Part shown: one piece after another, positions 1-20,865 of the stretch | How positions within the stretch are numbered: position 1 is the stretch's first letter | Layout of the letters: every line of letters starts with the position of its first letter | NCBI GenBank assembly: GCA_001600495.1 | Contig: BCKE01000102.1 | Location: 36,555 to 57,419, forward strand | Source: Pilasporangium apinafurcum | Taxonomy: Eukaryota > Oomycota > Peronosporomycetes > Pythiales > Pythiaceae | Direction: 5' to 3' | Length of the DNA stretch: 20,865 bases | Position numbers and translations under genes: made by a program | Notes under the pieces: generated by a model | Seen by the model: the letters and a program-made list of their open reading frames with translations, nothing else | Database searches by the model: none | Told to the model about the DNA's origin: nothing

Positions 1-14
1 CACGCGAAAACATC

Positions 15-710
15 ATGGACTCACCAGTACATGGAGCTGCTCGAGATGGAGATCTAAAACGAATTCGATATTTCGTGGAGGAAGAGGGACTACCACTAAA
101 CGAGATAGATCAAGATGGCGATACTCCTTTGATACTGGCAGCGCGTGAGGGATATCTCGATGCAGTCAAGTACTTTGTTGATAATGGAGTATCGGTGACT
201 ACGAAGAGCAAAAATGGCACTACTCCGCTACATGCAGCAGCAAGTGAGGGGCATCTTGATCTAGTCAAGTATTTTTTCGACAAGGGGGCAGTTGTGGATG
301 AAGCGGGCTGGCTTAGGGGAACTCCGCTACAGGCGGCAGCATTTGCGGGCCATCTTACTGTGGTCAAGTTTTTGATTGACAAGGGTGCGTCGGTGAATGT
401 GAAGAATGACTTTAACAGCACTCCGCTGTATGACGCAATAAGTCGAGGTCATCTTGATATTATTACGTATTTGATTGACAATGGAGCGCAAGTGAACGTG
501 AAAAGCAACGATGGCCGGACTCCATTACATAAAGCAGCATATGGGAATCTTTTGAATATGACTAAATATCTGATTGATAATGGAGCATCAGTGAATGAGA
601 AAGATCGATACGACAAAACTCCATTACATGCCGCTTCGAAATTGGGCCACAAAAAGATTGTTGAATTGCTATTAAGCTTTGGCGCTAAATTTGATTGTAT
701 TGATTATTGA
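15..710 (+). CDS. Ankyrin-repeat protein 1
   Basis: A 231-residue protein made almost entirely of ankyrin repeats, about six or seven of 33 residues, with the repeated pattern T-P-L-H-A-A-x-x-G-H-L-D-x-V-K-Y-L-I-D-N-G-A. Ankyrin arrays are protein-binding scaffolds and are abundant in giant viruses, where they are thought to bind host proteins. No second domain (no PRANC or F-box) is visible. The Met at 15 is preferred because the head that follows (A-A-R-D-G-D-L-K-R-I) aligns with the head of the ankyrin gene at 1768. The frame is open to the window edge, so a start further upstream cannot be excluded. The 3' end overlaps the convergent ankyrin gene by 26 bases. The stop is TGA and the same frame reaches TAA four codons later. 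The ankyrin call is certain; the target is unknown. Confidence 0.93.
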   Translation: MDSPVHGAARDGDLKRIRYFVEEEGLPLNEIDQDGDTPLILAAREGYLDAVKYFVDNGVSVTTKSKNGTTPLHAAASEGHLDLVKYFFDKGAVVDEAGWLRGTPLQAAAFAGHLTVVKFLIDKGASVNVKNDFNSTPLYDAISRGHLDIITYLIDNGAQVNVKSNDGRTPLHKAAYGNLLNMTKYLIDNGASVNEKDRYDKTPLHAASKLGHKKIVELLLSFGAKFDCIDY

Positions 711-1530
711 ACCAGTTTGTAAATTTGAATACCAAATTAGCTATCCAATTACTGTTACTTTTCTTCTCAGCTTTTTCTTTCAAGCCTACGAGCAATTCTT
801 GCAAACATTGTTTCTTCTTTACCTTCATTAGCAGCAACCAGTGTTCCTGTTTCGTCTGGACCTCCGTGAGACGCAACAATTTCTTCACCAGATCCACGTA
901 CCCCATAAACACTGCATACTCCAACGCTGTCCATAACTCCACGTTTCCATTTGGCAATTGAACTTGCGTCTCAGCATTGATGCTCACACAATCCCACTCC
1001 AATGGCTTCTCGAATTCGCGAAACTCGTTGATATTTCCATTGGAATACTTTACCACTTTGTGATATCCGAATTTATTCAAGTCATCAAGAAAACTGACTT
1101 CGAACGAGATCACTACAGCGCCATTCACAATCAAATACTCGACAACATCAAAATTACCCTTTCTTACCCCTCTATCCAAGGGGGTTTCGTTATTCTTGTC
1201 TTTTTTGTTCATTTGTAATCCATTGTCGATCAGATACTTGACAACATCAAGATTACCTTCATTGGTTGCTTCGAGTAATGGAATCCCGCCATCATTGCTC
1301 TCTGCATTCACTTGCGCTCCATTATCGATCAAATACTTGACCACGTCAGAATGATTATGACGAACAGCCTTATCCAATAAATTCCCGCCATACTTATCCT
1401 CATCATTCACTGATAATTCTTTCTGTTCCATGATCCATCGGAGTTTTTGTAGGTCTTCATCACGCGCAGCCTCGCGCATCTTAAAGGAAGGATTTGTTCT
1501 GCACCATGGTACACAGCAAGAGTGGTACAC
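685..1530 (-). CDS. Ankyrin-repeat protein 2 with divergent C-terminal half
   Basis: A 281-residue protein whose first half carries three or four ankyrin repeats with the same consensus as its neighbours (H-S-D-V-V-K-Y-L-I-D-N-G-A-Q-V-N). The second half (about residues 140-281) has only one or two weak ankyrin-like helices and a lysine-rich region ending in an aromatic segment (W-I-A-N-L-V-F-K-F-T-N-W-F). The annotated start gives a 17-residue leader before M-R-E-A-A-R-D-E-D-L. That Met (codon at 1479-1477) matches the heads of the other two ankyrin genes almost exactly, so it is an equally good start. The gene converges on ankyrin gene 1, overlapping it by 26 bases, and diverges from ankyrin gene 3. 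Likely a paralogue inverted after duplication. The ankyrin identity is secure; the C-terminal function is unknown. Confidence 0.88.
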   Translation of the reverse strand: MYHSCCVPWCRTNPSFKMREAARDEDLQKLRWIMEQKELSVNDEDKYGGNLLDKAVRHNHSDVVKYLIDNGAQVNAESNDGGIPLLEATNEGNLDVVKYLIDNGLQMNKKDKNNETPLDRGVRKGNFDVVEYLIVNGAVVISFEVSFLDDLNKFGYHKVVKYSNGNINEFREFEKPLEWDCVSINAETQVQLPNGNVELWTALEYAVFMGYVDLVKKLLRLTEVQTKQEHWLLLMKVKKKQCLQELLVGLKEKAEKKSNSNWIANLVFKFTNWFNNQYNQI

Positions 1531-2803: not shown

Positions 2804-3775
2804 ATGAAATCAAATGTTGAACGACAAATTTGTTTTCGTCTTCGGACCCAAGGATTTACTCTCAACAAAATGACTGGGATTCTCGATATATGCACACAAA
2901 CCGTCCAACGCTGACTCAGTGGTGTTGAGTTTGCGGTACGACCGCTCAATCGATCTCATTTACGTAAATTAAATGACAATCAACGCACTCATCTCGTCAG
3001 TTTTTTTCTTGATCACAATACAAGCACACTTGCTGATGGGGTTACTTTTGTAAAAAAAATACATATGAGATCGATATCTCTCTACGAACAGTTCAACGCA
3101 TACTAATAGAACATAGAATCACGTACAAAAAGGCATCCATTGCTTATCAAAAAGCCTGTAAAACACGACAACGTCATTTTCTGGCATCACTATCCAAACA
3201 TACAGAGAGAAAGCGGATAGCGTTGGATGAAGCAGCGTTCTTTCTCAATCATAGTAGAAAGTATGCATGGAGTATAAAAGGTCAGAGAGCTATTGTGAGA
3301 AAACCAGGACAACGAGGAAATTTACATTCGTTGATCTTAGCAACATCACCTGATGGTGTAGTCGACTGGCGTTTGTTTTCATGAAGTGTAAACTCTGTCC
3401 GCTTTCATTCTTTTTTGAGTGGTTTACCAAATGAAAGCAATGTTATCTTGGATAATGTTGCAACACATAAAGCAGTCGCTAGTTTACAGAAGATAGGTCT
3501 GACTACAATTCCCCAAACTGCTCAAGAGAAACAAATGAATATGCTTTATCTTTCTCCATATTCTCCACAGTTGAACCCTGTAAAGTTGTGTTTCATTACC
3601 ATTCGAACGTTTGTCAACGCAAGTACACCACGTACATCGGACGATCTCAAAACATGCATTCAAAATGTGTTACCAACACTCACATCATCGATTTGCAGGA
3701 AGATGTTCTTACAAACACTCGCGATTCAGCATTCACAATCATTGGTCACGATCTGCTATCAAAACGCAAAGTGAC
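2804..3775 (+). pseudogene. Decayed Tc1/mariner (IS630-superfamily) transposase
   Basis: Three blocks in different frames together resemble a Tc1/mariner/IS630 DDE transposase. Block 1 (2804-2914) is the N-terminal helix-turn-helix (M-K-S-N-V-E-R-Q-I-C-F-R-L-R ...). Block 2 (about 3065-3384) contains the second DNA-binding helix (I-S-L-R-T-V-Q-R-I-L) and the first catalytic Asp (A-L-D-E-A-A-F-F-L). It ends at an in-frame TGA at 3382-3384. Block 3 (to about 3774) holds the second Asp (V-I-L-D-N-V-A-T-H) and the motif S-P-Y-S-P-Q-L-N-P-V-K, where families of this kind normally have the catalytic Glu in place of the final Lys. Several stops lie between blocks 1 and 2, so the gene is dead. A matching, internally deleted copy lies at 14336-14535. 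I could not find convincing terminal inverted repeats or a TA duplication. Confidence 0.82.
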
Positions 3776-5605: not shown

Positions 5606-7627
5606 CTACATTGTAACCATGGTCTCTGCGTCTTCATCACTATCTCCACTCAAATCATATTCATTATTGTGATCACACACACATCCGGAAAAAAGGTCAT
5701 AAAGTATGTGATCCACTGCACCTTTGTTCCCGATGTTGGAATACACAAATACCAACTTCTCAACCCGATCAGCAGTTAGACGATTGCGCCGCTTGGAATG
5801 AATAAAACTATGGATACTTCAGCTTCGTTCACTGGATGCAAAGGACGTTGATATGCAAAAAATTTGAAGTGTAGAACCCCGCAGATTTGGAAACATATTC
5901 GACAGAGACTATCAATCCAAAGGATTGAACTTGGAGTGTTTCTCCTTTTCCTCTGGTGACCAGCGGTTCTTCGAGCGTGCAAATGCGACAAGATCGTTGT
6001 GAAAGTCATTCACGCTCACATTCTCAGGGAGGTCCACGTTTTGCGCCATGCTGACGGCATTGGCAATTGTATCAATAATACCGTTGTCGACAAATCCGCT
6101 TAGTGTCTTCTTTTGATCTAAGAAGTACGCTATCCCCATCGATCGTGTGAATAAAAATCGCTTTCGATCTTCAATCATATCGAGTATCATACTCTGGATG
6201 GCGGTATCAAGATTCTTAACAGGCTGCGTGTATACGTGATGTGATTTCAACCAGATAAACTGGTGAAAAATCATTGAGATGCAGCAGCTGTCTTTCTCAA
6301 ATAAAGCCGGACAGTCGGTGATTGGGTGAACAATTTTGAGCACGATATCTGCGTGACTTCAAAACGCTTCATCAAGTAAAACTGCCTTAGCATCTCGCAG
6401 CTTCTGCATGCTGCCCTTGTATCGATTTAATAGATTATTATCCGAAAATGTTGCCGCGATCGCATCCTTGTTCTCCACAACGCTTCTTATACACAACTCA
6501 CATGAATACCATCGAGTCGGCACTGGAATAGAAAGCGTGTGGCGCGAGTCGCCTTGTCCTTTCAGTTGCTTCTGCATCGCACGAAATCGATCCAGAAGTG
6601 CGTGTCGATTCTTAATGAATTTTGCAAGCAGTGTGGCCTTTTTTAAAACGCTCGCAAAATATTCCAGCCCGAAAACGTCTTTTACCAAGAGATTCATAGT
6701 GTGTGAAGCGCACCCATTACAGATCAATCCACGGCGCTCTCGCTCTAAAATTTGCCATGCACCGATCATGTTGGCTGGATTATCAGTTGCAACGGAGCAG
6801 ACGACTCCCTTGCCTACGATCTTTTCAACATCATCAATGACGATTAAAATGTGTTCTGTGATATACTCGGACGAATGAGCAGCTTCCCCTGTGGCAATTG
6901 ACTTCCAGAATACAGGCCGAATGTAGGGATTTGCGATCATAAAATTAATTATGCTCTCGTTGTTTGGATTTGACCAACCATCAGTAACCAACGATAGATT
7001 TGTGACTGTTGATATGCACTCTAGAACGCGTGCCTTTTCACGCTGATAAATTTTGTCGAGCAAGGTTTTAGCCAATTGATCTCGCGATGAGAGTTCATAG
7101 TCGAACATGGCTTTGAAGTAAGGATCGTCAACAACACGGAATGGAATGCCGGTAGCGTAGAAACCAGTAGCGACTGTTAAGAACTGATCTTCCTTTGTCG
7201 ATTTTTTAGGGGTCTGTAAAGTGCTTCGGCGCTTTTGATCCGAAGATGGCGTCACAAACAACTGCTTATTTACTGACGAAGGAGTCTCTCGTCGTTGATT
7301 CAGCTTCCGTGCAGGCGGCGTGGTCAGCTTTAGTTGCTTTGGTCTTCGTTGCTGGGCGTCTAGTAGCCTCCATTTTGCTTTTTCTTCTTCAGAAATCAAT
7401 CTACATTCTAGAACATGCTTCAGCATGTTGCGCGATGGCTGGGTATTTGTAACAAGAGAATTGCATTGTCTGCACGTGGCATCAGGATGAATCTTCTCCT
7501 GGATCGCGGGATGTTCACACCAAATAGCGCCCAGATTTCGTGAGGAGGTCGTCCCATACTTGCTCTTCTGACTCTCTAATCTAATTTGATTGTTCTCCCT
7601 CTCTCTCTCCTTGTAGAGAGAACGCAA
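5606..7627 (-). pseudogene. hAT-superfamily transposase with four in-frame stop codons
   Basis: One continuous minus-strand frame of 673 codons encodes a hAT transposase. It has an N-terminal BED-type zinc finger (residues about 33-75: W-C-E-H-P, then C-R-Q-C, H and C), the central DUF659/RNase H-like catalytic region (S-L-V-T-D-G-W-S-N-P; V-A-T-D-N-P-A-N-M; C-A-S-H-T-M-N-L-L; P-T-R-W-Y-S-C), and the C-terminal dimerisation region (A-S-S-E-R ... I-H-S-K-R-R-N-R-L ... V-E-K-L-V-F-V-Y). The frame is interrupted by TGA at 6361-6359, TGA at 5914-5912, TAG at 5911-5909 and TGA at 5821-5819. By family pattern these are positions where Trp is expected. No indel breaks the frame. The only start in the frame is a TTG at 7627, just after an in-frame TGA, so the true N-terminus is unclear. 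Excision and integration activity is presumably lost. Confidence 0.87.
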
Positions 7628-10288: not shown

Positions 10289-12199
10289 ATGACTAAGAAG
10301 ACCCCTTATGCCGATATTGTTGCTAAATTGCAAGAGTTGAATGTATCATGGAATGTTACTGAAGAAGCTTATATGAACATGGATATGGAAATGAAAGCCA
10401 AGTTCAAGTGCTCTCTTCATGGAGAGGAATGGGAAAACTCGACGATTCGCAGTGTGTTCAATGAGCGGAAGATGTGCAAACAATGCATGCGTCCAATATC
10501 AGCAGTGCTTAAATATACGAATCTTAAACCTAAGAATCGTGGGTCTGCGATCCCAAAAAGAGATGTGATTGCTAAGCTACAAGGTTTTGGTTATACCATC
10601 CTGGATCCATTCAAGAATATGAGCTCTTCCGTTAATTTCAGATGTGATAAAGGTCACACATGGAAAACTAGAATCTGTTATGTCTACCATGAGAATAGCA
10701 GATGCCCTGTGTGCGTCCAACCTTCGTGTGAAGCCATATCAATATTCGTTCTGGAGACACTTCTCGGCAAACCATTTAAGAAAACTCGAAGAGTACTCCC
10801 ATCTGGTTTAGAGCTGGATGGATACAATGATGAACTTAAACTAGCCATTGAATATAACGGCTCTCAGCATTATGTAGAGCAAAAAGCTTTCTTCCATCGA
10901 GAAGAAGGTTCCTTTGAAGCACAGCAAGAGCGTGACCGCAAGAAGCAAGAAGAATGCAAAGCATTGGGTATCAAGTTGATTATAGTTCATTATAAGGTGA
11001 ATACATTCAACAAGATTCTCGAGTATGTGAAATCAGAGGTGGTACGTTTGGGATACAACGCCATCCCGAATATTCATTGGGATATCCTCAAGAAGAATTT
11101 TCGTAAAACGTACAACTACAATATCTGCCAGCTGAATCGTATCCGAGAAATTGTGGAAGCCAAGAACGGCAAATGCTTGTCTACTAATTACATTGACAGA
11201 CTTGATCCACTGCGATTCAAATGCGAGGTGGATGAGCATCCAGAATTTGAAAAGGCTCCAGCATATATTATTGAAGGGAAATGGTGTAATGAATGTGCCC
11301 ATAATACCAGATTGGACGACGACATCCCAAGTATGACAAAAGAGGAAGCCGCCAACGCCTTAGGACTCGAAGAGCGTATGTATATTGTCCGTGAACGCCT
11401 GGACGAATACCTTGAGACTGGCAAAATTGTAGAGATTATGATACCAATCATAGACGATATTCCTCGCCCAACGGAGGAAATGCTTGAGCTCTTGAACACG
11501 CTAGATCCACGTGGAACCGGAAGAAGCGGTGGAATTGCTCGAACAAACGCAGATATCCAAAAGCGTATGCCATGCAGTCGAGTACTATCTTTCTTTGGGG
11601 AAACAGATGCATTGCAGATTTTTATCTGTCTGAAAACGCTGATGATCTTCATTCGTTCGCGCGAAAATATTCGCCAAGAAGATCGTATGTATTGTCCGCT
11701 CTGCAAGTTCAACCGTGAGGAAGATGTTTGTCGACGCAAATTCGGTCATAAAGATTTTTGGGCAGGAATGCCTGTGTACACATACAATCCTGTTCGCAAG
11801 ACAGATACAAATCCAGAACCGCTCAAATTTGTTGCCAAGTACNTGACNNTAGACGATGCTCTGAAGGACGAAAATGGCAAATATCCANCAAACATTATAG
11901 TAGTGATGAAGCCATTNCGTTACAGCCTATTNCAATGTGCCAANGGTTACCTTGCCAAGACCAACATTCCTGCGCGTGCTAANTGTAGAATGCAATATGT
12001 GTCTTTCTANCCNCCANGNNATGGTCNNTTGTCTGAGATAGATCCAAATTGGATCNTGTCACGNCGTTTAGACTGCGCCATCATCCGCTACATACGTAAA
12101 TATGTCCAGGATCAATATTTGGCAGAACGAGAAGTCGACAGAAAAAGATACGAGATGGAGATTGCGGCAAAGCGACGTAAATTCGCGAACTCTAAATAG
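10289..12199 (+). CDS. Zinc-ribbon protein with Vsr-like PD-(D/E)XK nuclease domain
   Basis: A 636-residue protein with modular zinc-binding units and a nuclease fold. Unit 1 has Cys41, His44, Cys63, Cys66; unit 2 (F-R-C-D-K-G-H-T-W ... C-P-V-C) has Cys119, His123, Cys139, Cys142; unit 3 has Cys312, His317 and C-N-E-C at 333-336. Another C-P-L-C lies near residue 473. Between units 2 and 3, residues 150-236 carry the pattern of very-short-patch-repair/homing-type endonucleases: Glu156, L-E-L-D-G-Y (Asp177), I-E-Y-N-G (Glu188), then R-D-R-K-K-Q-E-E-C-K-A-L-G-I-K-L-I-I-V. Such proteins are DNA endonucleases and are found in several giant-virus groups. The 3' fifth contains many Ns and a TAN codon at 12008-12010 that must not be a stop for the frame to hold. 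The likely role is DNA cleavage; the target is unknown. Confidence 0.85.
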   Translation: MTKKTPYADIVAKLQELNVSWNVTEEAYMNMDMEMKAKFKCSLHGEEWENSTIRSVFNERKMCKQCMRPISAVLKYTNLKPKNRGSAIPKRDVIAKLQGFGYTILDPFKNMSSSVNFRCDKGHTWKTRICYVYHENSRCPVCVQPSCEAISIFVLETLLGKPFKKTRRVLPSGLELDGYNDELKLAIEYNGSQHYVEQKAFFHREEGSFEAQQERDRKKQEECKALGIKLIIVHYKVNTFNKILEYVKSEVVRLGYNAIPNIHWDILKKNFRKTYNYNICQLNRIREIVEAKNGKCLSTNYIDRLDPLRFKCEVDEHPEFEKAPAYIIEGKWCNECAHNTRLDDDIPSMTKEEAANALGLEERMYIVRERLDEYLETGKIVEIMIPIIDDIPRPTEEMLELLNTLDPRGTGRSGGIARTNADIQKRMPCSRVLSFFGETDALQIFICLKTLMIFIRSRENIRQEDRMYCPLCKFNREEDVCRRKFGHKDFWAGMPVYTYNPVRKTDTNPEPLKFVAKYXXXDDALKDENGKYPXNIIVVMKPXRYSLXQCAXGYLAKTNIPARAXCRMQYVSFXXPXXGXLSEIDPNWIXSXRLDCAIIRYIRKYVQDQYLAEREVDRKRYEMEIAAKRRKFANSK

Positions 12200-12910: not shown

Positions 12911-13411
12911 TCACATATACTGCTCACAACGACGATACAAATCAATGTCTTCCAATGCGTCATCTTCATTACTGTAGTACCCTTCAGCCTCAGGATTCCA
13001 CATTCCTCTTGGTCGAGTGTATCTGTTCGACGTTCTTCGCCTTTGATTGGATGCTATTCGATTACTCTCGTCTCGCAAGCTTGTCATATATCGAATATTT
13101 CTTTGTGGAATCGCGCTCTCAATCAAGTATTCGTCACTTTGTTTTACGCGAAACATTTGTAGACCTCTAGTGTCGATTTCATACACCACCGCATTATTGC
13201 AAAGCCCGTGAATCCTTCTTCCCCAATAAATCGCGTGTCTTCTACTTGAGAAAGCCGACAGAAATGGACTTGCAGATGATCGATCCCATTCTAAATGTCG
13301 CTGTTGTTGCGACTCGAAATCTTCTTGAGAATTTGGGAGGCCACGGGGTGCCAGACCATTGCCAGCATTTCCATAAGGCTCGATGCGCCACACTGTTCGC
13401 GGTTGAGCCAT
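12911..13411 (-). CDS. Hypothetical arginine-rich 166-residue protein
   Basis: I do not recognise this protein. It starts M-A-Q-P-R-T-V-W-R-I and is rich in Arg, Ser, Asn and Tyr, with a basic middle (R-R-R-T-S-N-R-Y-T-R-P-R-G around residues 123-135) and an acidic end (N-E-D-D-A-L-E-D-I-D). Residues 60-110 contain a compact hydrophobic stretch (I-H-G-L-C-N-N-A-V-V-Y-E-I) that could form a small beta-rich domain. There is no signal peptide or membrane helix. It diverges from the membrane-protein gene at 13662 across a 250-base gap that contains a 20-base tandem repeat. The continuous frame and balanced composition support a real gene. Confidence 0.65.
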   Translation of the reverse strand: MAQPRTVWRIEPYGNAGNGLAPRGLPNSQEDFESQQQRHLEWDRSSASPFLSAFSSRRHAIYWGRRIHGLCNNAVVYEIDTRGLQMFRVKQSDEYLIESAIPQRNIRYMTSLRDESNRIASNQRRRTSNRYTRPRGMWNPEAEGYYSNEDDALEDIDLYRRCEQYM

Positions 13412-13579
13412 TTTTCTTGAACGTGAGGTCTTGATTGAGTGTTTTGAAGGGAAAAAAGAAAATGACTGTCAGATCTTGAAGAAAATAATCAGTTATGCAA
13501 AGACCATCAATCACGTCCTAGTCTATTCAATCAATTCATTTTTTTGCAATTCATTTAGGCACTTGTCAATTCGTGTTCT

Positions 13580-14635: not shown

Positions 14636-16574
14636 ATGAAAGACGAACGAAAGCGAAAGTATCGGCCAGGCAGATGTGAAGGAGCTGCGTCGGATATCAT
14701 TCAGCCGCAAGCTAAGAAACCCAAAGAAGCTCGTTTCAAAATTAATCTGCTTGCGCTTTTTTCCGATCCGAGATGTCAGAACGTGCTTTCTTTTCTTGAT
14801 TGGGATGAACTATGTCGCTGCCCGGACTTGTGGTTACTATCTCTCTTCGAGACGCATCTAGACAAGCTCCAATGGAAAAGTCTTTGCAATAGACCCCAAG
14901 AATGGATGCTGCCATTATTCCAAGCGCGTCCAGATAAGCTTTATTGGGATATTCTTTGTCTAAAGTCCCAAGAGTGGATGTTGCCACTTTTCCAAGCGAA
15001 TTTGGGTAAACTCGATTATGGAAAACTCTACAATGGATTTCGAGAATGGATGCTACCACTCTTTGAAGCGTGTCCAGATGCCCTTTGTTGGTTACAACTC
15101 TGCAGGAACCCTCGAAAATGGATGCTGTCGCTCTTCAAAGCACACCCAGATAAGATCGAATGGGAAGAACTCTGCCATAAACCTCAAAAATGGATGCTAC
15201 CGCTCTTCGAAGCGTATCCAGAGAAGCTCAATTGGACATTACTCTGCGACGGAACCCAAAAATGGTTACTTCCTCTCTTGACGGCACACAAGAACAATAT
15301 TGATTGGAAACAACTTTGTTCTTCTCCTCATATATCGATATTACCCTTCTTACGAGCAAATTTGGAAAAAACTCCAATGGGAACAACTTTGTACCCAACC
15401 TCAAGAATGGCTGCTAGTGCTTTTCGAGGAGCACAAGGACAAGCTTGAATGGAAACAACTCTGTGATGCACCTGAAAAATGGATACTGCCATTCTTTGAA
15501 GAAAACCCTGAAAAGCTCATTTGGAGATGGCCCTACTTTACGCCTCGAAAATGGTTGTTGCCACTATTCGAATCACATCCAGAAAAGCTCCTTTGGGATA
15601 ATATTTGCATTTCTCGGAAAGAATGGATGTTGCCANTTTTCCAAGCAAACCCAGACAGGCTTGATTGGACACCACTGTGCATCGAACCTCCACAATGGTT
15701 GCGACCGCTTTTCGAAGTAAACCAAGACAAGCTTGATTGGACACAACTTTGCGTGCATTCTCGAGAATGGTTGCTGCCACTCTTCGAAATATATCCAGAT
15801 AAGCTAAACTGGGATCTTCTTTGTAGAAACCCTGAAAGATGGATACTGCCGTTTTTTCAACAAAACACAAACCGATTACAGTGGAATAGACTTTGTTGCG
15901 ACGTGAAGGAATGGATGCTGCCACTGTTTCAAGCAAATCCAGACAAACTCTTCATTCAGGTTGATGAAGGCAATCTCGACCTGCGTATTCTTTGTGAAAA
16001 CCCCCAAAAGTGGATGCTGCCACTTTTTCAAGCTTACCCAGATAAGCTCTATTGGAATACTCTTTGTCTAAAGTCCCAAGAGTGGATGCTGCCACTATTT
16101 CAAGCAAATCCAGATAAGTTTGACTTGCAAAATTTTAGGAATCGTCAATGGGCACTTCCGTTGTTCATCGCTTATCCAGATAAAATTGATTGGAAATATC
16201 TTCTATCTGATCGTCCTTATTGGTATAACCATCAAGATTGGTTCATCGATTTATTTGAAGCGCATCCAGATCGTGTGAAAGAATGGTATCCTCCATGTGA
16301 CACTCTTACTGAGCGAGTGCTATCATTCATTCGAAAATATCCTAATACTGTTTGTTGGGATACACTTGGGNAAGATGNANNGGAANNTTCAGCCATNCCN
16401 TTGTTCGAAGCATTNCCTGAATATGTCAATTGGGACAATATATCGCAGCATGAATGGGCAATACCACTACTTCGCAAGTATCCTCATCGTGCCAATTGGA
16501 GAACAGTCTCTCGACAATATTGGGGGAAAGCATTTATGAACGAATTTCCTTGGCATACATATCTATCTTCGTAA
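14636..16574 (+). pseudogene. 24-residue-repeat protein A, frameshifted
   Basis: Two frames form one gene. From ATG 14636 the first runs through a basic N-terminus (K-R-K-Y-R-P-G-R ... Q-A-K-K-P-K), the family head D-P-R-C-Q-N-V-L-S-F-L-D-W and about eight repeats of the W-M-L-P-L-F-Q-A-N-P-D-K-L-x-W type. At 15366-15371 a run of six A (five would fit) throws the frame off inside repeat 8. The repeats continue in the next frame to TAA at 16572. In all about 24 repeats over some 645 residues; the last four or five are divergent. The repeat resembles the D-K-I-D-W / N-P-x-A-I-x-L-L repeats common in giant viruses. If the extra A is real, only a protein of about 270 residues is made. Several Ns occur at 16372-16415. 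Confidence 0.8.
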
Positions 16575-16580
16575 AATTTT

Positions 16581-16670
16581 ATGTGGTTTACATAACGGCA
16601 ACTTGTTTTGATTGGTTAAAAACAATGCATAATTTGGCGCGTTTTCTATCAACCCACATCATTTTTTTCG
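16581..16670 (+). promoter_or_regulatory. Repeat-family spacer module, copy 2
   Basis: Between genes A and B. It has, in order, atgtggtttacataacggcaac, a T-run with gattggttaaaaa, ataatttGGCGCG (core 16636-16641), then tatcaacccacatcattttttt, and the ATG at 16671. The first half probably ends the upstream transcript and the second starts the next, judged from order and conservation in four spacers. Confidence 0.6.
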
Positions 16671-18356
16671 ATGCCAGCGAAAGACGAGTACAAGCGAGAG
16701 CGCCAACACTTTGAGGGAACCGTATTGAATCCCAATCAATCACCAACAAAGAAACCCAAACTTAATCTATATGCGCTGTTATTTGATCCCAGATGTCAGA
16801 ACGTGTGTTCGTTTCTCGATTGGAGTGAGTTGTGTTACCATCCAGAACCATGGATGCTACCGCTCTTCAAAGCGAACCTAGACAAGCTTGATTGGAAACA
16901 ACTCTGTCGTGAACCTTGGGAATGGATACTGCCGCTCTTCAAAGCACATCCAGACAAGTTTAATTGGAAAAGACTTAGCAATACTGATGATGAATGGATG
17001 TTGCCATTGCTACAAGAGAATCCAGATAAGCTCTATTGGGATCGTATTTGCTACAACCCGCAAAAATGGATGATACCGCTATTACAAGCAAATCTAGATA
17101 AGCTTGATTGGGAAGGAGTCTCTCGGAGCCGTCGAGATCATTTAGTACCTTTTTGGGAAGAACATTTGGGCAAGCTTCGTTGGGAGTACATTTGTGATTG
17201 TCCTGAAGAGAAGATGTTACCATTTTTTCAAGCGAATATAAATAGGCTCGATTGGGAATCGTTTTGCCACAAGCCCAGAAAATGGATATTGGCACTCTTG
17301 ACGATAGTAGATCCTGACAAACTTGATTGGAAACTACTCTGCTACAAACCTCAAAAATGGATGTTGCCTTTTTTTCAAGCACATCAAGACAAACTCGATT
17401 GGGAAAGACTCGGGTACGAATCTCAAGAGTGGATGCTGCCGCTGTTTGAAGCGAATCCAGATAAGCTTCCTTGGAGAACTGTTTCCATTATTCGTCCACA
17501 ATGGGCGCTACCACTTTTCCAAGCAAACCCAGACAAAATTGAGTGGAATCGTTTCTGCAGGTTCCCTCGCGAATGGATGCTACCTTTTTTAACAGAGCAT
17601 TTGGATAAGCTTGATTGGGCGCAGTTTTGCAAAACGCCTGAAGAACAGATGTTACCTTTTTTGACAGAACATTCAGACAAGCTTGACTGGATAGAGCTTT
17701 GCAAGAATCCTCGAGAATGGATGCTACCACTCTTTGAAGCCCATCCAGACAAGCTTGACTGGAAACAACTTTGTGATACTTCTCCGTATGACACAATATA
17801 TTCCGCAGTGAACCAAACAGAATGGATACTGCCATTTTATCAAACACATATAGATAAGCTTGATTGGGAACGACTCTGCAACAAACCTCGAAAATGGATG
17901 CTATCACTCTTTGAAGCGCATCCAGACAAGCTTGATTTGAGGAGCTTCTGTTATAAACCTCAAGAATGGATGCTACCGTTTTTTCAAGCGCGCCCAGATG
18001 AGCTCAATTGGATGCAACTGTGTAATGAGCCTCAAGAATGGATGCTACCATTTTTTGAAGCGCATCCAGACAAACTCCATTGGAGATTTTTACTTTATAA
18101 CTCTCAAGAATGGATGTTACCACTTTTCCAAGCAAATTTAGATAAGCTCGAATGGGGAGAACTCTGCGACACACCTCAAAAATGGATGTTGTCACTCTTT
18201 CAAGCACACCCAGATAGTCTCGAGTGGGGATACCTTTGTATGGAACCTCAAGAATGGATGTTGCCACTTTTCCAAGCGAATCAAGACAAACTCCATTGGA
18301 ATCGACTTCGTGAAAATCCCCCAGAGTGGATATTGATGTGGTTTACACAGCAGTAA
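16671..18356 (+). CDS. 24-residue-repeat protein B
   Basis: An intact 561-residue protein. Residues 1-40 are basic (Y-K-R-E-R-Q ... P-T-K-K-P-K-L), like a bipartite nuclear localisation signal. The family head follows (L-F-D-P-R-C-Q-N-V-C-S-F-L-D-W-S-E-L-C), which resembles the core of an F-box. Then come 20 full repeats of 24 residues with consensus W-M-L-P-L-F-E-A-H-P-D-K-L-D-W-x-x-L-C-x-x-P-Q-E, plus a partial one; repeats 5 and 6 lack the leading Trp. The repeats should form a solenoid of short helices and act as a binding surface. The C-terminal M-W-F-T-Q-Q is encoded by the start of the spacer module, so the stop has moved about 25 bases downstream compared with gene C. The function is unknown; the family resemblance is to giant-virus repeat proteins. 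Confidence 0.92.
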   Translation: MPAKDEYKRERQHFEGTVLNPNQSPTKKPKLNLYALLFDPRCQNVCSFLDWSELCYHPEPWMLPLFKANLDKLDWKQLCREPWEWILPLFKAHPDKFNWKRLSNTDDEWMLPLLQENPDKLYWDRICYNPQKWMIPLLQANLDKLDWEGVSRSRRDHLVPFWEEHLGKLRWEYICDCPEEKMLPFFQANINRLDWESFCHKPRKWILALLTIVDPDKLDWKLLCYKPQKWMLPFFQAHQDKLDWERLGYESQEWMLPLFEANPDKLPWRTVSIIRPQWALPLFQANPDKIEWNRFCRFPREWMLPFLTEHLDKLDWAQFCKTPEEQMLPFLTEHSDKLDWIELCKNPREWMLPLFEAHPDKLDWKQLCDTSPYDTIYSAVNQTEWILPFYQTHIDKLDWERLCNKPRKWMLSLFEAHPDKLDLRSFCYKPQEWMLPFFQARPDELNWMQLCNEPQEWMLPFFEAHPDKLHWRFLLYNSQEWMLPLFQANLDKLEWGELCDTPQKWMLSLFQAHPDSLEWGYLCMEPQEWMLPLFQANQDKLHWNRLRENPPEWILMWFTQQ

Positions 18357-18465
18357 CTTTTTTTGATTGGTTAAAAAAAACATATGGAATAAAGAATACA
18401 TAACTGGCGCGATTTCTATCTCAACCCACATCATTTTTTGTCTTTCATCGAACTCATTAATACCA
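18334..18465 (+). promoter_or_regulatory. Repeat-family spacer module, copy 3
   Basis: Overlaps the last codons of gene B (gatgtggtttacacagcagtaac), then a T-run with gattggttaaaaa, ataactGGCGCG (core 18406-18411), ctatctcaacccacatcatttttt and a 20-base insertion before the ATG at 18466. The insertion places the core 54 bases from the start instead of about 30. Confidence 0.6.
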
Positions 18466-20100
18466 ATGAGAGTCGAATGCAAGCGGAAGTGTTGTTCAGA
18501 TCTCGCCCAGCTGCAAGTTAAGAAAAGGAAAATCGATCTGATTGCGCTATGTACTGATCCTAGATGTCAGAACGTGCTCTTATTTCTTGACTGGAGGGAA
18601 CTTTGTGACCGTCCAGATCCATGGATGTTACCACTTTTCCAAGCAAACCTCAACAAGCTCAATTGGTGGAGACTGTGTATCAGACCCCAAAAATGGATGT
18701 TATCATTGCTCCAAGCGAATTCAGACAAACTCCATTGGAATCACATTTGCAATTGCCCAGAGGAGTGGATTTTGTCACTATTACAAGCAAACCTAGATAA
18801 GCTCGATTGGACATCACTTTGTCGGTGGCCTAAAAAATGGATATTGCCATTCTTTGAAGCGAATCCGGACAAGCTCGATTGGAAATTGCTCAGCAATAAT
18901 CTTCAAGAATGGATAATACCTCTTTTGATCGCATATCCCGATAAGCTTAATTGGGAACGGATTTGTCGTTATNATCAAAAAGCATTTGTATTGCCGCTAT
19001 TCGAAACACACCCAGATAAGCTCAATTGGGAGGTACTCTGCTACGAACCTCAAGAAGAAGAATGGATATTATCACTGTTTCAAGCTCACCCAGATAAACT
19101 TAATTGGGAGTATCTTCACTACTTTGTAAAAGAATGGATGCTGCCACTTTTTGAAGCGAATCCAGACAAACTCAATTGGGAGAAACTCTGTACCAAATCT
19201 AAAGAATGGATGTTACCGCTCTTTCAAGCAAATCCAGACAAGATTTTTTGGGAAGAACTTTGTTACAAATCTCAAGAGTGGTTACTACCATTCCTCGAAA
19301 CGCACGTAGATAAAATTGCTTGGGAACAACTTTCCTACGAACCTCAAGAATGGATGCTGCCATTTTTCAAAGCGCATGTAGATAAGCTCTCTTGGGAAGA
19401 ACTTTGTTACAAATCTCAAGAGTGGTTACTACCATTCCTCGAAATGCACCTAGATAAAATCGCTTGGAAACAACTTTGCTACAAACCTCAAGAGCGGTTA
19501 TTACCATTTTTCAAAGCGCATCTAGATAAGCTCTCTTGGGAAGAACTTTGTTNCANTTCTCAAAAATGGATGCTATCATTCTTCGAAACACATCCAGATA
19601 AGCTCCATTGGGATAAACTCTGCGAAAACTCTGAAGAATGGATGCTACCACTTTTTCAAAATCACCTAGACAAACTCAACTGGGAGAAACTCTACTACAA
19701 ACCTCAAGAATGGATGCTGCCGCTTTTCAAGACATGCCCAGATAAGCTTAATTGGACGCGACTCTGCTACAAACCTCAAGAATGGATGCTACCGCTCTTC
19801 GAAGCACATTTAGACAAACTCGATTGGAAAAAACTCTGCTTGTGTTCTCCAAAGTTGATGCTACCATTTTTTGAAGCGCATCCAGATAAGCTCCATTGGA
19901 CACGACTCTTTTTGTACGGTCCTCAAGAATGGATGCTACCACTCTTTGAAGCACACCCAGATAAGCTCAATTGGGAGAAACTTTGCAACAGGCCTAAGGA
20001 ATGGATGCTACCTCTTTTTCAAGCAAATCCAGATAAACTCCATTGGGATCGACTTCGTGAAAATCCCAAAGAATGGTTGTTGCCATTACTCCAGAATTGA
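18466..20100 (+). CDS. 24-residue-repeat protein C
   Basis: A 544-residue protein using the ATG at 18466, which aligns with the starts of A and B; the frame is open 33 codons further upstream, but that stretch is the conserved spacer. The N-terminus is basic and bipartite (C-K-R-K then V-K-K-R-K-I), followed by the family head (D-P-R-C-Q-N-V-L-L-F-L-D-W-R-E-L-C), 20 full 24-residue repeats and a partial one. Repeats 10-11 and 12-13 are a recent two-unit duplication (144 bases). Two repeats contain small insertions (E-E before W-I-L-S-L-F; an extra residue in F-L-Y-G-P-Q-E). Three undetermined bases lie inside (18973, 19553, 19556). It has the same repeat count as protein B, suggesting a fixed solenoid length. 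The likely role is a host-interaction scaffold, possibly nuclear, by inference. Confidence 0.92.
   Translation: MRVECKRKCCSDLAQLQVKKRKIDLIALCTDPRCQNVLLFLDWRELCDRPDPWMLPLFQANLNKLNWWRLCIRPQKWMLSLLQANSDKLHWNHICNCPEEWILSLLQANLDKLDWTSLCRWPKKWILPFFEANPDKLDWKLLSNNLQEWIIPLLIAYPDKLNWERICRYXQKAFVLPLFETHPDKLNWEVLCYEPQEEEWILSLFQAHPDKLNWEYLHYFVKEWMLPLFEANPDKLNWEKLCTKSKEWMLPLFQANPDKIFWEELCYKSQEWLLPFLETHVDKIAWEQLSYEPQEWMLPFFKAHVDKLSWEELCYKSQEWLLPFLEMHLDKIAWKQLCYKPQERLLPFFKAHLDKLSWEELCXXSQKWMLSFFETHPDKLHWDKLCENSEEWMLPLFQNHLDKLNWEKLYYKPQEWMLPLFKTCPDKLNWTRLCYKPQEWMLPLFEAHLDKLDWKKLCLCSPKLMLPFFEAHPDKLHWTRLFLYGPQEWMLPLFEAHPDKLNWEKLCNRPKEWMLPLFQANPDKLHWDRLRENPKEWLLPLLQN
19252..19539 (+). repeat. 144-base tandem duplication within gene C
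   Basis: The block 19252-19395 is repeated at 19396-19539 with few differences and opens with the same run gaagaactttgttacaaatc. Each block encodes two 24-residue units (48 residues), so the array grew by a two-unit step. Confidence 0.85.
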
Positions 20101-20203
20101 TGTGGTTTACATAACGGTAACTTTTTTTGATTGGTTAAAAAATAATGAATGCATAATTTGGCGCGCTCTCTATCTCAACTCACATCATTCACATAGTTCC
20201 TCA
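20098..20203 (+). promoter_or_regulatory. Repeat-family spacer module, copy 4
   Basis: Starts at the TGA of gene C (tgatgtggtttacataacggtaac), then a T-run with gattggttaaaaa, gcataatttGGCGCG (core 20160-20165), ctatctcaactcacatcatt, and a stretch leading to a GTG at 20204 in the position of the family ATG. The module itself looks intact although the start codon behind it is lost. Confidence 0.6.
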
Positions 20204-20260
20204 GTGTCAGCGAAAGTAGCGGCACAATCTCATACTACCACGGAGTAAGGAAAAGCAACA

Positions 20261-20865
20261 ATGACCAAGAAAGAACATTTCAAGATCAATCTGATTACGC
20301 TATGCACTGATCCCAGGTGTCAGAACGTGCTTTTATTTCTTGACTGGCGTGAACTCTGTGGCCATCCGGAATCATGGATGTTGCCACTCTTTGAAGCAAA
20401 CCCAAACAAGCTCCGCTGGAGATATCTGTGCATCAGACCTCAAAAATGGATGCTATCGCTCTTTGAAGCGAATCTAGACAGGCTCTATTGGGATCGGATC
20501 GGCAGCGAACCTCGAGAATGGACGTTGCCACTATTACAAGCAAACCTAGATAAGCTCGATTGGGGATATCTTTGCTCGCGGTCTTACAAATCGGTACTAC
20601 CGCTCTTTGAAGCTAATCCAGATAAGCTTGATTGGAGACGATTCTGTGAAGAACCTCAAGAATGGATAATACCGCTCTTGATAACATATCCCGATAAACT
20701 TGATTGGAAACGGCTTTGTCGTTATCCTGAAAACCCAATGTTATTGCCGCTCTTTGAAGCACATCCAGACAGGCTCGATTGGAGACGATTCTGTGAAGAA
20801 CCTCAAGAATGGATAATACCGCTCTTGATAACATATCCCGATAAACTTGATTGGAAACGGCTTTG
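20261..20865 (+). CDS. 24-residue-repeat protein D, truncated by window end, N-terminus lost
   Basis: From ATG 20261 an open frame runs to the window edge without a stop (201 complete codons). It begins M-T-K-K-E-H-F-K-I-N-L, then the family head D-P-R-C-Q-N-V-L-L-F-L-D-W-R-E-L-C and seven repeats. The family start position (20204) now reads GTG, and 14 codons on is TAA (20246-20248) in the same frame; the basic N-terminal segment of A-C is therefore lost, and the Met at 20261 sits only a few residues before the conserved head. This could be a functional shortened form or the first step of decay. The last 89 bases repeat 20630-20718 exactly. The 3' end is not in the window. Confidence 0.85.
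   Translation, partial: MTKKEHFKINLITLCTDPRCQNVLLFLDWRELCGHPESWMLPLFEANPNKLRWRYLCIRPQKWMLSLFEANLDRLYWDRIGSEPREWTLPLLQANLDKLDWGYLCSRSYKSVLPLFEANPDKLDWRRFCEEPQEWIIPLLITYPDKLDWKRLCRYPENPMLLPLFEAHPDRLDWRRFCEEPQEWIIPLLITYPDKLDWKRL
20630..20865 (+). repeat. 147-base tandem duplication at the window end in gene D
   Basis: Bases 20630-20718 recur without a mismatch at 20777-20865, a period of 147 bases (two 24-residue units plus one codon). The window stops inside the second copy, as expected if an assembly broke at an unresolved repeat. It could also be an assembly duplication. Confidence 0.85.

What the first reader, a model, noticed from the sequence alone, without database searches (positions are those of the whole stretch)
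14636..20865. Tandem array of four large 24-residue solenoid proteins, apparently a giant-virus family
Four adjacent paralogues share a head (D-P-R-C-Q-N-V-x-x-F-L-D-W-x-E-L-C) and a strict 24-residue unit W-M-L-P-L-F-E-A-H-P-D-K-L-D-W-x-x-L-C-x-x-P-Q-E. The D-K-L-D-W part resembles the D-K-I-D-W / N-P-x-A-I repeats known from giant viruses, but the W-M-L-P-L-F half is distinct. B and C both have exactly 20 full units plus one partial, which argues for selection on length. The members sit at different stages: frameshifted (A), intact (B, C), N-terminally eroded (D).
Basis: partly seen in the sequence, partly recalled or inferred. Interest (0 to 1): 0.75.

Follow-up and report, generated by a model that had tools for sequence, protein, structure and literature searches.

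The report
Tandem solenoid genes resembling viral repeats
A row of genes coding for spring-like repeat proteins, related to repeats known mainly from large viruses and giant phages, turns out to belong to a gene family in the genome of what is most likely an oomycete (water mould), where many copies look intact and selection holds most of the repeat constant while a few positions change faster.

Summary
In detail: four adjacent paralogues (14636-20865) share a head and a strict 24-residue unit, far above chance. B and C each have 20 full units plus a partial. Corrections: D keeps its head, lacks only the basic leader and is cut by the contig end; the 'length selection' argument fails, because sister copies B' and C' have about one and two units fewer and head-bearing frames span about 8-30 units. 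AlphaFold2 gives a clean helical solenoid (pLDDT 87.9). The window lies in a 36.5-Mb, 136-contig assembly, not a virus genome. I count 22 head-bearing copies on 9 contigs, 17 open from head to a stop, often near Crinkler genes (8 of 15 clusters within 5 kb). Nine of ten recent pairs have dN/dS 0.23-0.56; constraint is weakest at positions on or beside helix 2. Relatives are the 'tryptophan repeat'/NPNAI-DKIDW repeats of large viruses and jumbo phages, plus a Phytophthora protein. Best reading: a nuclear-encoded, probably nuclear-localised binding-scaffold family in an oomycete, a new variant of a known repeat. Expression, partner and direction of virus-host transfer are not shown.

The parts
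14636..15448 (+). Gene A, first open frame (270 aa): basic leader, head at 14765-14815, 7 full units and the start of an eighth; the frame changes at about 15360-15375
15282..16574 (+). Gene A, second open frame (430 aa): about 11 full and several partial or divergent units and the tail RQYWGKAFMNEFPWHTYLSS; not joined to the first frame here
16671..18356 (+). Gene B, intact, 561 aa: basic leader, head, 20 full units and a partial; unit 13 carries an 11-residue insertion
   Evidence: AlphaFold2 solenoid, pLDDT 87.9
16785..16835 (+). Head of B (DPRCQNVCSFLDWSELC); in register with the repeat (unit start 24 residues before the next), so I read it as a degenerate N-terminal capping unit
18466..20100 (+). 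Gene C, intact, 544 aa: basic leader, head at 18556-18606, 20 full units and a partial
20261..20865 (+). Gene D, cut by the end of the contig: starts at MTKKE, head intact at 20309-20359, six full units and a partial up to the window end; lacks the basic leader of its paralogues
16580..16670 (+). Intergenic block before B, similar before A, C, D and other copies: GATTGG (reverse CCAAT), then TCAACC and CATCATT near the start codon
18357..18465 (+). Intergenic block before C (same layout)
20101..20260 (+). Intergenic block before D (GATTGG and CATCATT present, TCAACC altered)

Best explanation
The array is part of a nuclear-encoded multigene family of intracellular alpha-solenoid binding proteins in an oomycete-like protist, built from a 24-residue unit of the 'tryptophan repeat' superfamily otherwise seen mainly in large DNA viruses and jumbo phages. 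Each unit makes a helix (positions 2-10), a short helical turn (12-14) and a second helix (17-22). Positions W3, L5, L7, F8, L15, W17, L20 and C21, which I took as the core, are strongly conserved; positions 16, 18, 19, 22 and 23, on or beside helix 2, change fastest. I infer that these residues are exposed and form the contact surface, and that gene duplication with gain and loss of units makes new binding specificities. A basic, NLS-like leader on most copies suggests action in the nucleus. Shown: repeat, predicted fold, family size, duplication, purifying selection that depends on unit position, co-location with Crinkler genes. Inferred: oomycete host, nuclear location, binding function. 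Not shown: expression, partner, direction of virus-host transfer.
For: 36.47-Mb assembly with 107 tblastn matches on 10 contigs, a lower bound for pieces, not a gene count. 22 head-bearing copies by my count, two of them with variant heads, 17 open from head to a stop; some of the 17 may be shortened, e.g. C14:664871-667279 ends inside a unit. Model of B with mean pLDDT 87.9 and 44 helices of four or more residues in a regular pattern. dN/dS of duplicates with dS up to 0.22: B/B' 0.31, C/C' 0.28, A1/A1' 0.29, A2/A2' 0.56, D/D' 0.39, C14/C112 0.23, C106/C117 (short pieces) 0.32, C71/C121 0.38, C71/C106 0.37. Pooled by unit position: 0.12 in the core, 0.26 at positions 1, 2, 9-12, 0.75 at 16, 18, 19, 22, 23. 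Same-index units match best between close duplicates. Basic clusters by pattern in 19 of 21 leaders. Upstream GATTGG in 15 of 21 (7% of random places), TCAACC 14 of 21 (3%), CATCATT-type 13 of 21 (3%); initiator TCAYTYY 11 of 21 (9.5%), combined INR+FPR only 2 of 21 (0.5%); CCAAT upstream of INR is a described oomycete promoter layout (PMC3599244, passages). Crinkler within 5 kb of 8 of 15 clusters. Named oomycete relative P0068, Phytophthora idaei.
Against: No transcript or protein data. Contig C102 itself has no Crinkler match and carries transposon and TnpB-like pieces. Most named relatives are viral or phage. A, A' and D' are interrupted and many headless fragments exist. One of ten recent pairs (C106/C117, long pieces) gave dN/dS 1.40, on 1 synonymous and 6 other changes. 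Upstream blocks are paralogous, so their motif counts are not independent; 0 of 12 Crinkler upstreams have the CATCATT form, 2 of 12 GATTGG, 4 of 12 TCAACC. pTM is modest (0.65). Exposure of the fast positions was not measured.
Confidence: 0.66

Rival explanations
1. The array belongs to an endogenous or episomal giant virus, and the solenoids are viral proteins (host-interaction repeats such as those of entomopoxviruses), amplified by the virus or after integration.
For: Closest solenoid models are viral: BFVD hits to MSV205, Marseillevirus LCMAC101, Megaviridae, Orpheovirus. C102 also has TnpB-like pieces, a thioredoxin, small ORFs that look like membrane proteins by eye, and ankyrin ORFs, which giant viruses often have (recalled).
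Against: Paralogues lie within 3 kb of Crinkler genes on C71 (213 kb) and C14 (704 kb), as well as on short contigs; DUF659 and DDE_3 transposase ORFs in the window; upstream blocks look like oomycete promoters. No MCP or VLTF3 match in the genome, but no control genome rang, so this is weak. Scans of viral contigs confirmed no relative, but the scan with the NPxAI proteins themselves was also empty, so the scans are insensitive.
Confidence: 0.15
2. The proteins are secreted effectors delivered into a host, parallel to Crinklers, with the solenoid binding host proteins.
For: Near Crinkler genes in 8 of 15 clusters; expanded, duplicating family; some unit positions change fast.
Against: No Crinkler N-terminal domain in B or C; leaders are charged and basic, without a hydrophobic signal stretch (by eye; no signal-peptide program was used).
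Confidence: 0.13
3. A decaying, mostly non-functional repeat family kept up by unequal crossing-over in repeat-rich contig ends.
For: A, A' and D' are interrupted and many headless fragments exist; all 15 clusters lie within 37 kb of a contig end, partly because several contigs are short; C14 and C28 end in the same block with a 151-b satellite, 97.6% identical.
Against: dN/dS 0.23-0.56 in nine of ten recent pairs, and lowest at core positions; 17 of 22 head-bearing copies open from head to a stop.
Confidence: 0.06

Closest known systems
Tryptophan repeat gene family (entomopoxviruses, e.g. MSV205; jumbo phage vB_BpuM-BpSp gp053-gp058)
   Same: B's model matches MSV205 (Foldseek E 9.9e-11); C matches BpSp proteins (tblastn E 4e-6) and Listeria phage LPJP1 (E 3e-8); own-family profile against one BpSp protein: hhalign E 2e-6, probability 89%; in BpSp too the genes are adjacent (six).
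   Different: 15-26% identity in the five best structural matches; encoded in a cellular-size genome; WMLPLF half, C21 and the DPRCQN head; basic leader.
NPNAI / DKIDW repeats, typical of giant viruses (recalled), here as metagenome proteins such as P0001, P0010, P0015
   Same: Profile alignment probability 100%, E 2.7e-39; DK(L/I)-x-W and WxxL shared.
   Different: N-P-x-A-I replaced by W-M-L-P-L-F; mostly C instead of S at unit position 21; of the 66 hits only P0006 and P0035 have the WxLP pattern three or more times.
P0068, Phytophthora idaei hypothetical protein PI124_g18323
   Same: WMLPLLEANTDKLDW units, 95 of 243 aligned columns identical to C; basic C-terminal tail.
   Different: 249 aa, fewer and less regular units, no head.
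P0070, unnamed metagenome protein (246 aa, longest contig 33 kb)
   Same: Same head (ERCSNILSFLDWYEIS) followed by WMLPLF units; 78 of 239 aligned columns identical to B from the head onwards.
   Different: Short, no leader, organism unknown.

Membership tests
Tryptophan repeat / NPNAI-DKIDW repeat superfamily | Tandem unit of about 24 residues with a nearly invariant Trp | tested here: met
   W3 98%, W17 97% in 93 units; lag-24 z 14-34
Tryptophan repeat / NPNAI-DKIDW repeat superfamily | Sequence-profile homology to named or typical members | tested here: met
   hhalign E 2.7e-39; phrog_3532 E 2.4e-31; BpSp E 4e-6
Tryptophan repeat / NPNAI-DKIDW repeat superfamily | Same predicted fold | tested here: met
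   14 BFVD models at E <= 0.001, among them MSV205 and MSV029; TM-scores low (0.18-0.42 by query)
Tryptophan repeat gene family as a virus-encoded family | Encoded by a virus or phage | tested here: not met
   Window is part of a 36.47-Mb, 136-contig assembly with 63 Crinkler matches; integrated viral DNA is not excluded
NPNAI sub-type | N-P-x-A-I half-unit | tested here: not met
   Replaced by W-M-L-P-L-F
Endogenous giant virus | Hallmark genes (MCP, VLTF3) in the genome | tested here: inconclusive
   No match, but no control genome rang
Crinkler effectors | PF20147 N-terminal domain | tested here: not met
   No PF20147 in B, C (from 18532) or the two A pieces
Armadillo / HEAT / pumilio solenoids of solved structure | Clear structural match | tested here: inconclusive
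Leucine-rich variant (LRV) 24-residue repeats | Alternating alpha and 3-10 helix in a 24-residue unit | tested here: inconclusive
   Unit shows helix, short helical turn, helix; no Pfam LRV match. The likeness is recalled
F-box-type adaptors | F-box domain at the head | tested here: inconclusive
   No Pfam F-box match; the head falls in unit register. One entomopoxvirus tryptophan-repeat protein, AMV254, is reported to have an F-box (PMC7728225, passage)

The most novel reading that the evidence does not exclude
An oomycete lineage took over a viral tryptophan-repeat protein and turned it into a nuclear family of modular binding proteins, growing together with Crinkler genes, in which the fast-changing residues on and beside helix 2 act as a per-unit recognition code that changes by duplication and unit gain or loss.
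Probability: 0.22. Interest if true: 0.72.

Novelty: new variant of a known kind. Interest (0 to 1): 0.46.

Why it matters
Repeats of this kind are found in large viruses and jumbo phages, but B and C match no Pfam or NCBIfam model above its cut-off (a few NPxAI relatives barely pass HEAT_PBS or NosD), the family profile and model find no solved structure, and I found no tested function. A cellular family with some 17 open copies, recent duplicates and measurable selection gives a system in which function, binding face and virus-host exchange can be tested. It also shows that a giant-virus-like repeat is no safe sign that a contig is viral.

Full report
Where the window lies. A whole-genome search places it at G000:C102:36555-57419, the end of a 57419-base contig of a 36,473,033-base, 136-contig assembly. 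No virus of that size is known (recalled), so the sequence is part of a eukaryote-size assembly. B gives 107 matches on ten contigs there (pieces, not genes, and a lower bound). Six-frame reading of 20 fetched stretches and the window gives, by my count, 22 copies with the head on nine contigs (C102, C14, C71, C112, C28, C106, C121, C111, C117): 20 by the head pattern and two with variant heads (C102:5411, C71:15712). 17 are open from head to a stop, though some may be shortened (C14:664871-667279 ends inside a unit); A, A', D' and C121:7557-8180 are interrupted or short, and D is cut by the contig end. Headless fragments lie on several of these contigs and on C27.

The observation. The 24-residue period is not chance. 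B and C have 20 full units and a partial each. But C102 carries a second array, A'-B'-C'-D'-E' (14842-24421), a segmental duplicate with 81-96% DNA identity in the best aligned pieces, and after the head B' is 24 residues shorter than B and C' 49 shorter than C. Over 20 head-bearing frames the length after the head runs from 8.3 to 29.7 units. So unit number is not held constant. A's frame change is shared with A'. D keeps the head and lacks only the leader.

Relatives. The unbiased protein search gave 66 hits, best E 5.6e-31, 21-38% identity. Two of the 66, P0006 and P0035, carry the WxLP pattern three or more times. Alignment searches added P0068 of Phytophthora idaei, and P0070, P0071 and P0072. 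P0070 has the same head and aligns with B from there on at 33%; P0068 aligns with C at 39%. Profile comparison with 12 NPxAI proteins is strong for homology (probability 100%, E 2.7e-39). Jumbo phage BpSp has six adjacent 'putative tryptophan repeat gene family' genes. Against a viral reading: five scans of viral contigs with these proteins or alignments confirmed nothing; but two of them gave 367 and 293 pattern matches that tblastn did not confirm, and one used the NPxAI proteins themselves, so the scans are insensitive.

Neighbours. 57 flanking ORFs were scanned: 8 have the Crinkler N-terminal domain, others ankyrin repeats, transposase, reverse transcriptase, TnpB-like and thioredoxin domains. 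The genome has 63 Crinkler matches, none on C102. Eight of 15 solenoid clusters, as I grouped them, have one within 5 kb; for random placing the chance per cluster is about 0.018 and the tail about 6e-11, an overstatement because both families lie in repeat-rich regions. The clusters lie within 37 kb of a contig end, partly because several of these contigs are short. The end of C14 and the start of C28 share a 700-base block with a 151-base satellite.

Promoters. Upstream blocks hold a reverse CCAAT box and an initiator-like CATCATT. In P. infestans CCAAT boxes lie upstream of INR at a median of 83 nt, and the commonest INR is TCATTCT (PMC3599244, passages seen). The combined INR+FPR pattern is in 2 of 21 solenoid upstreams only. 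Of the 12 Crinkler upstreams found, 6 have TTTCTTCATTTGA before the start and the other 6 close variants, by eye, like the published INR+FPR block; they do not have the CATCATT form (0 of 12). This supports an oomycete host but not a shared promoter.

Selection. Nei-Gojobori estimates for 16 pairs: 15 lie at 0.17-0.56; C106/C117 gave 1.40 on seven changes. Ten pairs have dS up to 0.22; nine of them lie at 0.23-0.56. The second frame of A (0.56) is the most relaxed of these. Nine pairs pooled by unit position: core 0.12, all other positions 0.37, positions 16/18/19/22/23 0.75, positions 1/2/9-12 0.26. I had grouped the positions from the unit composition, not from the structure. The fast ones lie on or next to helix 2 in the model (positions 17-22, from the secondary structure). 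I had no coordinates, so exposure and the concave or convex face were not measured. A value below 1 fits relaxed constraint as well as mild diversification.

How it would work. Fixed scaffold, fast positions around helix 2, many paralogues with changing unit numbers and a basic leader (19 of 21) fit a family of nuclear binding scaffolds. The step from fast positions to binding, and from leader to nucleus, is inference. Transfer from a virus is plausible since most named relatives are viral, but the direction was not tested; no tree was built because 24-residue units carry little signal.

Noticed in passing
window 3-710, 685-1530 (-), 1768-2688: Three ankyrin-repeat ORFs at the left end of the window (Pfam Ank_4 9e-62, Ank 1e-75 for the two + strand ones; the minus-strand one is ankyrin-like by eye).
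   Followed up: partly
window 6359-7627 (-) and 3415-3774 (+): DUF659 ORF (E 2e-22; hAT-transposon type, recalled) and a DDE_3 transposase fragment (E 1e-7).
   Followed up: no
window 10289-12199: 636-aa ORF with zinc-ribbon-like cysteines and a nuclease-like stretch by eye; weak DUF2726 (E 0.16); distant relative in IMG/VR contigs, one of which looks like a phage.
   Followed up: partly
window 12914-13468 (-): ORF with a DUF7587 match (E 7.5e-9).
   Followed up: no
L010:9630-9998 (-) and L011:395-1750 (-): TnpB/IS605 OrfB-like pieces (OrfB_IS605 E 6e-5, below cut-off; helix-turn-helix E 5e-10), perhaps eukaryotic Fanzor relatives.
   Followed up: no
L015:3641-5470: Crinkler N-terminal domain followed by a protein-kinase domain.
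   Followed up: no
L043 (C14 end) and L021:1-720 (C28 start): The two contigs end in the same block, 97.6% identical over 698 bases, with a 151-base satellite; possible subtelomere or assembly break.
   Followed up: partly
KT895374.1 43106-46369 (L009): Jumbo phage BpSp carries six adjacent 'tryptophan repeat' genes: the same tandem habit in a phage.
   Followed up: no
P0069: A metagenome protein joins NPNAI repeats to a cytidine/dCMP deaminase domain (E 6.6e-20).
   Followed up: no
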